Shown here: positions 37,843 through 39,957 of the stretch, piece after piece
Numbering within the stretch: position 1 is the stretch's first letter
How the letters are laid out: the number at the start of each line of letters is the position of its first letter
NCBI RefSeq assembly: GCF_000724625.1
Contig: NZ_CP007139.1
Coordinates: 1,612,001 to 1,676,000, forward strand
DNA: 64,000 nucleotides
Reading direction: 5' to 3'
DNA from: Fimbriimonas ginsengisoli Gsoil 348
Lineage (GTDB): Bacteria; Armatimonadota; Fimbriimonadia; Fimbriimonadales; Fimbriimonadaceae
Program-made: the position numbers and the translations under genes
The notes under the pieces: generated by a model
Database searches by the model: none
What the model saw: only the letters and a program-made list of their open reading frames with translations
Told to the model about the DNA's origin: nothing

Positions 37843-39957
37843 CTACAAACCCATGATCTTCTGCAACAGCGCCTTCTGCGCGTGGAGGCGGTTCTCGGCT
37901 TGGTCGTCGGTGCGGCTCTGCGGACCGTCGATGACGTCCGCCGTAACCTCGAAGCCGCGGCGGGCCGGAAGGCAGTGGAGGAAGATGGCGTCTTTTTCCG
38001 CCATCGACATCAGCCGGCCATTCACCTGGTACGGCTCGAACACCTTCAGGCGGTGCTCCTGCTCGTGCTCGTCGCCCATGGATACCCAAACGTCCGTGTA
38101 CACCACGTGGGCGCCGGCAACCCCTTCTTCGAGGTTGGTCGTCTGCCGAACCCCTTCGATTGGCTCCAGGCGGAAGTTCTCGGGGCCGCAGATGGTGAAC
38201 GGATAGCCGAGGCGCGTCGCCAGCTTGGCGAGCGAGCGGGCGACGTTGTTTCCGTCGCCGACGTAGGTGATCTTCACCTTGTCCTGGCCGAAAACCTCCC
38301 GGATCGTCTGCATATCGGCTAGGGCCTGGCAAGGATGCTCCCACTCCGTGAGGGCGTTGACGACGGGCACGGTGGCATGCTCGGCAAGCTCCACGATGTC
38401 GCGCTGCCAATAGAGGCGGGCCACGATGAGGCTGCACCAACGGGAGAGGTTGCTGGCGACATCCTTGATCGGCTCTCGTTGACCCATTGCGATCGAATCT
38501 TTTCCGAGGTGGAGAGGATGCCCGCCAAGCTCTCGGATCGCGGTTTCGAATGAGACTCGGGTTCGAAGCGATTGCTTCTCGAACACCATTGCGACGGTTC
38601 GCCCCTCTACCGCCTGAATGACCGACGGGGCGAGCGCGCGGCGCTGCTTGCTGTAAGCGGCGAGGTCCAGCACCTCTTCTAGCTGCCCGTCCGTCATGTC
38701 GTCGATCGACAAGAAGTCGTGAGCCGGCTTGACGGCCGTCGACGTCCGGGTCGAAATCGGCGTCAGCGCCGGCGTTTCCACTCCCATTGCCTCGGCCAAG
38801 ATACCGATCGCCTTGGCGATCTGCTCCTCGGTGACGATGAGCGGCGGCACGAATCGAAGATTAAGCTCGTCGGTCGCGTTGATAATCAGCTTTCGGTCGA
38901 AGCAGGCACGAACGATGTCTCTCGCCACCGGCTTGTCCAAAACCGCGCCGAGCATCAGCCCCTTTCCTCGGACTTCGACCACTCCGGGCAGTTTTGCGAG
39001 CGCGTCCCTTAAGAAACCGCCCACCCTCTCCGCATTCTCAAGAAGGTCTTGGTGGTCCAAAGTGTCGATCACGGCCAGCGCGGCGGCGCAGACCAAGGGG
39101 TTGCCCCCGAATGTGGTGCCGTGGTCACCGGGTTCGAGAACGGAGGTCGCCTTCTGGGCGACGACGACCGCGCCGATCGGCAAGCCGCCCCCAAGGCCCT
39201 TCGCCAAAATGAGCACGTCGGGTCGGACCCCGTGGTGTTGGAAGGTGAACCACTTTCCGCTCCGCCCCATGCCGCACTGAACCTCGTCGAGGATAAGTAG
39301 CGCGTCGTGCTCTCGGCACAGCCGCTCGGCTTCCTGGAGGTATTCGGTCGAGAGGTCCAGGATTCCCCCCTCGCCCATGATCGGCTCGAGAAGGACCGCC
39401 GCCGTTTTGTGGCTGAAGGCGTCTCGAAGCTCTTGGAGATCGTCGGCGGTTACGTGGACGAAGCCGGGGACGAGCGGCTCGAACGGACGTTGGTATTTGC
39501 GCTGCCCGGTTGCCGAGAGCGCGCCCATCGTTCGCCCGTGGAACGAGCGATGAAGGGTGATGATCTGGTAGTCGCCGTCCGGACGCTTCTTGTTTCCGTG
39601 CTTCTTGGCGATCTTCAGGGCCGCTTCGTTGGCGGTCGCCCCGTCGTTGGCGAAGAAGACCCGCTCCATGCCGCTGATCTCCGTCAGCCGCTTGGCGAGC
39701 TGCGCCTGGGGGGCCGTGAGAAGGAGATTGCTGGTGTGGATGAGCTGCTGCGCCTGACGGGTGATCGCGGCGACCACGGCCGGATGGCAATGGCCAAGCT
39801 GGCAGACCGCGATGCCGGCAAGCATATCCAGGTACTCGTTCCCCCGGTTATCCCAGAGGGAGCAGCCCGCGCCTTGCACGAAGAGTGCCGGCATTCGGTT
39901 GTAGGTGTGCAGCACGAACTCGTCGTCGGCCGTCTTGATCGAATCGTATTTCAACAT
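37843..39957 (-). CDS. Bifunctional fusion: acetylornithine aminotransferase (ArgD) - ornithine carbamoyltransferase (ArgF)
   Basis: This is a 704-residue single-frame protein. Residues 1-395 are a complete class-III PLP aminotransferase of the ArgD type: AGIAVCQLGHCHP, FFANDGATANEAALKIA, SFHGRTMGALSATGQ, LILDEVQCGMGRSG and the PLP lysine Lys253 in LAKGLGGGLPIG. A linker (about 396-412, Thr/Pro-rich) leads to a complete carbamoyltransferase (413-704) with SLRTR (463-467, carbamoyl-phosphate loop), HPCQALADMQT (541-), DVWVSMG (622-628, ornithine loop) and HCLPARRG (661-). The SMG and HCLPA motifs favour true ornithine over acetylornithine carbamoyltransferase. Both enzymes serve arginine synthesis, but the deacylation step lies between them. 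No other arg gene is adjacent. Confidence 0.9.
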   Translation of the reverse strand: MLKYDSIKTADDEFVLHTYNRMPALFVQGAGCSLWDNRGNEYLDMLAGIAVCQLGHCHPAVVAAITRQAQQLIHTSNLLLTAPQAQLAKRLTEISGMERVFFANDGATANEAALKIAKKHGNKKRPDGDYQIITLHRSFHGRTMGALSATGQRKYQRPFEPLVPGFVHVTADDLQELRDAFSHKTAAVLLEPIMGEGGILDLSTEYLQEAERLCREHDALLILDEVQCGMGRSGKWFTFQHHGVRPDVLILAKGLGGGLPIGAVVVAQKATSVLEPGDHGTTFGGNPLVCAAALAVIDTLDHQDLLENAERVGGFLRDALAKLPGVVEVRGKGLMLGAVLDKPVARDIVRACFDRKLIINATDELNLRFVPPLIVTEEQIAKAIGILAEAMGVETPALTPISTRTSTAVKPAHDFLSIDDMTDGQLEEVLDLAAYSKQRRALAPSVIQAVEGRTVAMVFEKQSLRTRVSFETAIRELGGHPLHLGKDSIAMGQREPIKDVASNLSRWCSLIVARLYWQRDIVELAEHATVPVVNALTEWEHPCQALADMQTIREVFGQDKVKITYVGDGNNVARSLAKLATRLGYPFTICGPENFRLEPIEGVRQTTNLEEGVAGAHVVYTDVWVSMGDEHEQEHRLKVFEPYQVNGRLMSMAEKDAIFLHCLPARRGFEVTADVIDGPQSRTDDQAENRLHAQKALLQKIMGL

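What the first reader, a model, noticed from the sequence alone, without database searches (positions are those of the whole stretch)
37843..39957. ArgD-ArgF fusion: aminotransferase and carbamoyltransferase of arginine synthesis in one polypeptide
One uninterrupted frame of 704 codons encodes a complete PLP aminotransferase (Lys253) followed by a complete carbamoyltransferase (SLRTR 463-467, DVWVSMG 622-628, HCLPA 661-665) with only a ~17-residue linker. The SMG and HCLPA motifs fit ornithine as substrate, yet ArgD makes N-acetylornithine, so a deacylase (ArgE or ArgJ) must act between the two fused activities. The fusion could therefore form a complex with ArgE/ArgJ, or the aminotransferase half could act on another substrate. 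I know of no described fusion of these two.
Basis: partly seen in the sequence, partly recalled or inferred. Interest (0 to 1): 0.85.

Follow-up and report, generated by a model that had tools for sequence, protein, structure and literature searches.

The report
Fused arginine-synthesis enzyme, ArgD plus ArgF
In one family of bacteria, two enzymes of arginine synthesis that do not act one after the other (acetylornithine aminotransferase and ornithine carbamoyltransferase) are permanently joined in one protein, a fusion I found no earlier description of and that raises the question why enzymes separated by a middle step are tied together.

Summary
The fusion is real. A 704-codon frame on the minus strand (39957-37843) encodes a complete ArgD-type aminotransferase, a linker of about 19 residues and a complete ornithine carbamoyltransferase (OTC), each above NCBIfam's curated cut-offs. 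It is no assembly accident: 31 of 85 genomes of the same family carry it, 30 with an open frame. Both halves are under strong purifying selection and keep their catalytic residues; the linkers do not align. The window's genome has no other OTC. It has argB, and argC beside argJ, so ArgJ is the likely deacylase between the two fused steps. Within the family, fusion and ArgJ occur together (30 genomes; 1 fusion without ArgJ, 2 ArgJ without fusion). N-acetylornithine carbamoyltransferase (AOTC), which would make the two steps consecutive, is in 34 genomes, none with fusion or ArgJ. The fusion arose once in this family; a second fusion occurs in another family of the phylum; losses of one half are seen. 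Many other bacteria have argD and argF in one frame with a single stop between. I found no description in the held literature. New variant of a known kind (fused arginine enzymes). Activities, channelling and an ArgJ complex are untested.

The parts
37843..39957 (-). ArgD-OTC fusion gene, 704 codons, ATG to TAG
   Evidence: open in 30 genomes of the family
38788..39903 (-). acetylornithine aminotransferase half (residues 19-390, PF00202; NF002874 equivalog above cut-off)
   Evidence: closest solved relative acetylornithine aminotransferase 2ord, 405 bits
39199..39201 (-). PLP-binding lysine K253, invariant in 31 aligned fusions
39634..39645 (-). PLP-loop residues 105-108 (DGAT; CGAT in most relatives) in place of S/T-G-x-E found in the other ArgDs compared
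38728..38784 (-). linker, residues 392-410, not conserved in sequence, about 15-21 residues in relatives; partly low model confidence
38296..38718 (-). OTC carbamoyl-phosphate domain (residues 414-554, PF02729)
37861..38280 (-). OTC ornithine-binding domain (residues 560-699, PF00185)
38557..38571 (-). SLRTR carbamoyl-phosphate motif (463-467)
38074..38082 (-). SMG ornithine-loop motif (626-628), invariant in the fusions
37963..37977 (-). HCLPA motif (661-665), invariant in the fusions

Best explanation
It is a bifunctional arginine-synthesis enzyme. The N-terminal half (ArgD) turns N-acetylglutamate semialdehyde into N-acetylornithine. ArgJ, a separate protein, moves the acetyl group to glutamate and frees ornithine. 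The C-terminal half (OTC) carbamoylates ornithine to citrulline. Most likely the fusion arose once in the ancestor of this family group and is kept because it fixes equal amounts of two enzymes that flank ArgJ in one tethered assembly. Shown here: the open frame, intact catalytic residues, purifying selection, no other OTC in the genome, and the tie to ArgJ. Inferred: both activities, fixed stoichiometry as the benefit, and the assembly form. From general knowledge ArgD is a dimer and OTC a trimer, so a D3-like hexamer or a larger network is expected.
For: Both halves pass curated family cut-offs. Catalytic residues are invariant or nearly so in 31 fusions. dN/dS is about 0.01-0.11 in both halves while the linker is freer. 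In this genome there is no second OTC, only a hit that sits before a dihydroorotase-like gene and reads as pyrB; argB is at 3221002; argJ lies beside argC. The second strong class-III aminotransferase scores best as putrescine aminotransferase and is below the argD cut-offs. In the family, 30 of 31 fusion genomes have ArgJ against 2 of 54 others. AOTC is in 34 genomes, with neither fusion nor ArgJ in any. Each half traces one origin in the trees.
Against: No activity has been measured. The two enzymes are not consecutive, so simple substrate channelling between the halves cannot be the reason. The second, separate fusion (G011, G014) is in genomes in which no ArgJ was found, so ArgJ is not a general requirement for such fusions. 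All family fusions carry an unusual PLP loop whose effect is unknown. Genomes G101, G121 and G129 keep only one half. The sister family f3 has argD and OTC far apart, so joining by simple loss of a stop between neighbours is not shown for this lineage.
Confidence: 0.85

Rival explanations
1. The fusion is a neutral by-product: the two genes became joined in one frame, both enzymes tolerate the tether, and it persists without advantage. (This rivals only the benefit claimed in the best explanation, not the two activities.)
For: Many bacteria have argD and argF in one frame with exactly one stop between. The linker is unconserved. A second fusion arose elsewhere in the phylum. Lineages can drop either half.
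Against: No genome was seen in which the fusion had split back into two linked genes; it has persisted while the halves diverged to 55-80% identity. The sister family f3 does not have the genes adjacent.
Confidence: 0.35
2. The aminotransferase half works mainly as ornithine delta-aminotransferase, making ornithine directly for the OTC half, so that the fused steps are consecutive.
For: It would make the fusion consecutive. The PLP loop differs from the other ArgDs compared. Related genomes carry free OTC close to argG-like, argH-like and divergent aminotransferase genes, without ArgJ.
Against: The half scores 484 bits on the argD equivalog and only 327 on Orn_aminotrans, below its cut-off of 378. 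Fusion genomes keep ArgJ, which needs N-acetylornithine. It groups with ArgDs in the tree.
Confidence: 0.06
3. The carbamoyltransferase half acts on N-acetylornithine (AOTC), making the two steps consecutive.
For: AOTC is common in the same family.
Against: SMG and HCLPA motifs are invariant; TIGR00658 and NF001986 are above cut-off; the window genome gave no AOTC match at E 1e-60, whereas complete AOTCs in relatives score 306-402 bits; fusion genomes have ArgJ, AOTC genomes do not.
Confidence: 0.03
4. Artefact or dead gene: a lost stop or an assembly error joins two genes that are really separate, or the fusion is a pseudogene.
For: One metagenome-assembled relative (G086) has a TAG inside the OTC half and no ArgJ was found in it.
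Against: Open frame in 30 genomes, low dN/dS, no second OTC in the genome.
Confidence: 0.01

Closest known systems
Free ArgD (acetylornithine aminotransferase, e.g. PDB 2ord) and free anabolic OTC (ArgF, e.g. PDB 1a1s)
   Same: Full-length similarity of each half, curated cut-offs passed, catalytic residues kept
   Different: Here both are in one chain; the PLP loop S/T-G-x-E is C/D-G-A/T-T/S/G in every fusion of the family
ArgH(A), argininosuccinate lyase fused to an N-acetylglutamate synthase domain (PMC1382215)
   Same: A natural fusion of two non-consecutive arginine-synthesis enzymes, thought to come from tightly packed arg genes
   Different: Different enzymes; there first and last step, here the steps on either side of ArgJ
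Bifunctional N-acetylglutamate synthase-kinase of Xanthomonas campestris (PMC1865377)
   Same: Fused arginine enzymes in one polypeptide
   Different: Those two steps are consecutive
argD-argF gene pairs in one frame (in Betaproteobacteria, Rhodobacterales, Caulobacterales, Planctomycetota, some genomes of the window's own phylum)
   Same: Same gene order and often one stop codon between the frames
   Different: Separate proteins

Membership tests
Acetylornithine aminotransferase (ArgD) | Score above the curated cut-off of an argD model | tested here: met
   NF002874 484 bits, cut-off 457; TIGR00707 470, cut-off 410
Acetylornithine aminotransferase (ArgD) | PLP lysine, DEVQ aspartate and glutamine, FHGRT arginine, threonine of the GTTFGGN loop | tested here: met
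   K253, D224, Q227, R142, T282 invariant in 31 fusions
Acetylornithine aminotransferase (ArgD) | S/T-G-x-E sequence in the PLP loop (conserved in the set compared here; not an official criterion of the family) | tested here: inconclusive
   The sequence itself is absent: E108 is T/S/G in all fusions of the family and in G121/G129, E in all the other rows; whether it is needed for ArgD function is unknown
Acetylornithine aminotransferase (ArgD) | Transamination of N-acetylornithine | not testable with these tools
   needs an assay
Ornithine carbamoyltransferase (OTC, ArgF) | Score above TIGR00658 and NF001986 cut-offs | tested here: met
   328 (281) and 362 (306) bits
Ornithine carbamoyltransferase (OTC, ArgF) | SxRTR, HPxQ, DxxxSMG, HCLP motifs | tested here: met
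Ornithine carbamoyltransferase (OTC, ArgF) | Carbamoylation of ornithine | not testable with these tools
   needs an assay
N-acetylornithine carbamoyltransferase (AOTC) | Score above NF003384 cut-off (288) | tested here: not met
   No match in the window genome at E 1e-60; 34 other genomes of the order are over the cut-off
Ornithine aminotransferase (OAT) | Score above TIGR01885 cut-off (378) | tested here: not met
   327 bits

The most novel reading that the evidence does not exclude
The fusion is the scaffold of an arginine metabolon: the ArgD dimer and OTC trimer of the fused chain build a hexameric cage or network that docks ArgJ between the halves and passes N-acetylornithine and ornithine from site to site, with the changed PLP loop tuned to this assembly. 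This would explain why fusion and ArgJ are gained and lost together and never occur with AOTC.
Probability: 0.12. Interest if true: 0.7.

Novelty: new variant of a known kind. Interest (0 to 1): 0.45.

Why it matters
Fusions are usually explained by channelling between consecutive enzymes. Here the joined enzymes are separated by a third, free enzyme, and the same bacterial family offers natural controls: relatives with AOTC, in which the two steps would be consecutive and are not fused, and relatives that keep only one half. That makes the question what enzyme fusion is good for testable. It also warns annotators: a best-hit method would call only one of the two functions and report the other as missing.

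Tried and rejected
A deep alignment with free OTC rows misplaced about 100 residues of each OTC row, so the fold used ArgD rows only; the ArgD half folds with high confidence, the OTC half is poor for lack of rows and is not used as evidence, and part of the linker is low-confidence. Internal start for a free OTC: one weak GTG with a GAGG upstream in this gene, not conserved in relatives, so not a general mechanism. Named loci in other phyla that matched the whole query turned out to be separate genes. A scan of another phylum could not be started. Literature searches for a described ArgD-ArgF fusion found none.

Full report
What is there. The frame at 37843-39957 is on the minus strand and encodes 704 residues. 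Pfam gives Aminotran_3 at 19-390, OTCace_N at 414-554 and OTCace at 560-699. NCBIfam places the first half above the argD equivalog cut-off (NF002874, 484 bits against 457) and the second above the OTC cut-offs (TIGR00658, 328 against 281; NF001986, 362 against 306). The closest solved relatives are acetylornithine aminotransferase 2ord (405 bits) and OTC 1a1s (255 bits). The genome is one contig of 5,231,762 bases, which matches the size of Fimbriimonas ginsengisoli Gsoil 348 (5.23 Mb, PMC4072686); that identity is an inference. The main text of that genome paper has no mention of argD, argF or fusion.

It is not an artefact. A search of 291 genomes of the phylum found the full-length fusion at 59% identity or more in 31 genomes of the same family, the window's included. 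In 29 of the 30 loci examined the frame runs open through both halves; in G086, a draft assembly, one TAG stands in the OTC half where the window has a tryptophan codon. G135, without a locus, is reported with an open frame of 719 aa. Pairwise dN/dS between fusions is about 0.01-0.11 in both halves (some dS are saturated), and catalytic residues are invariant (29 rows of the family plus two of the second fusion). Linkers are about 15-21 residues and not alignable (the 33 in one locus is an effect of a shortened hit).

The rest of the pathway. The window genome has two carbamoyltransferase genes, the fusion and one that sits before a dihydroorotase-like gene and reads as pyrB. argB is at 3221002 (248 bits, cut-off 151). 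argJ is at 2278602-2279792, directly downstream of an argC-like gene. Of the other class-III aminotransferases, the strongest scores best as putrescine aminotransferase, below the argD cut-offs; another lies by hem genes (by reading). DapE/ArgE-type M20 proteins exist but none reaches the curated cut-off. The simplest reading is the ArgJ pathway, with the fusion supplying the steps before and after ArgJ.

Two pathway types in one family. Among 85 genomes of the family: fusion 31, ArgJ 32, both 30. The exceptions are G086 (fusion with internal stop, no ArgJ found, 89% complete) and G085 and G102 (ArgJ but no fusion found; 94% and 68% complete). AOTC (NF003384) is in 34 genomes of the family (33 over the cut-off), and none of these has the fusion or ArgJ. 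In G083 the AOTC gene lies between an ArgD-like and an ArgB-like gene, after argR-, carA- and argC-like genes (by reading except AOTC); in G080, G121 and G129 an M20 gene lies next to AOTC. So where the two steps would be consecutive the enzymes are separate, and where they are not consecutive they are fused. Fisher tests give p of 2e-19 (fusion with ArgJ) and 8e-10 (fusion against AOTC), but genomes are related, so these are not independent events and the p-values overstate the case.

History. Trees of each half group the family's fusions together with full support. A second fusion, 727-734 aa and about 46% identical, is in G011 and G014 of another family and groups apart; no ArgJ was found there, and its deacylase is not identified. 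Free aminotransferases of G121 and G129, which have AOTC, branch inside the fusion clade and share its PLP-loop signature; G121's sits behind the same nucleotidyltransferase-like gene as the fusion does in G087 and G079. G101 has at that place only an OTC 70% identical to the fused one. These look like losses of one half after fusion; for G101 the order of events is not resolved. The related family f3 has free argD and free OTC at distant places, with ArgJ. Elsewhere argD and argF often lie in one frame with a single stop between them (this sample is biased towards such pairs because the search rewards matches across both). Loss of one stop is thus an easy route to fusion, but it is not shown to be the route taken here.

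An odd feature. In every fusion of the family, and in G121 and G129, the PLP loop reads C/D-G-A/T-T/S/G, where all other ArgD-like rows compared, including f3 and the second fusion, have S or T (C in one) and E. Its effect is unknown. It could be neutral or could change substrate use; the ArgD score and the retention of ArgJ speak for an ordinary ArgD.

What it does. I expect both activities with ArgJ acting between, tethered at equal amounts. From general knowledge ArgD is a dimer and OTC a trimer, so six chains in a D3-like assembly, or a network, would satisfy both. Direct channelling between the halves cannot serve the pathway unless ArgJ joins the assembly. Whether the fusion is selected for dosage, assembly or nothing at all is open; I give the neutral account about one chance in three.

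Novelty. The held open-access library has no paper that I could find describing this fusion; subscription papers and protein databases were not searched. Fused arginine enzymes are known, also non-consecutive ones (ArgH(A), PMC1382215), so I call it a new variant of a known kind.

Noticed in passing
L132 969-3173 (-) and L133 1318-3501 (+): A second ArgD-OTC fusion (734 and 727 aa, about 46% identical) in another family of the phylum, grouping apart from the first; no ArgJ found in either genome.
   Followed up: partly
L139 4528-10074: AOTC-type arginine cluster in a same-genus relative without fusion or ArgJ: argR-, carA-, argC-, argD-like genes, AOTC, argB-like gene.
   Followed up: partly
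L154, L155, L156: Free OTC near argG- and argH-like genes and a divergent class-III aminotransferase, in genomes without ArgJ: possibly arginine made from ornithine via an ornithine aminotransferase.
   Followed up: no
L018 3049-3051: Draft-genome relative G086 has a TAG in the OTC half where the window has a tryptophan codon, and no ArgJ was found: decay of the pathway or an assembly error.
   Followed up: partly
window 39634-39645 (-), residues 105-108: PLP-loop S/T-G-x-E replaced by C/D-G-A/T-T/S/G in all fusions of the family and in two secondarily free aminotransferases.
   Followed up: partly
L047 8600-9976 (-): ArgJ of the window genome matches its family in two stretches with about 28 residues between, while in most relatives one stretch covers it: a possible insertion.
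   Followed up: no
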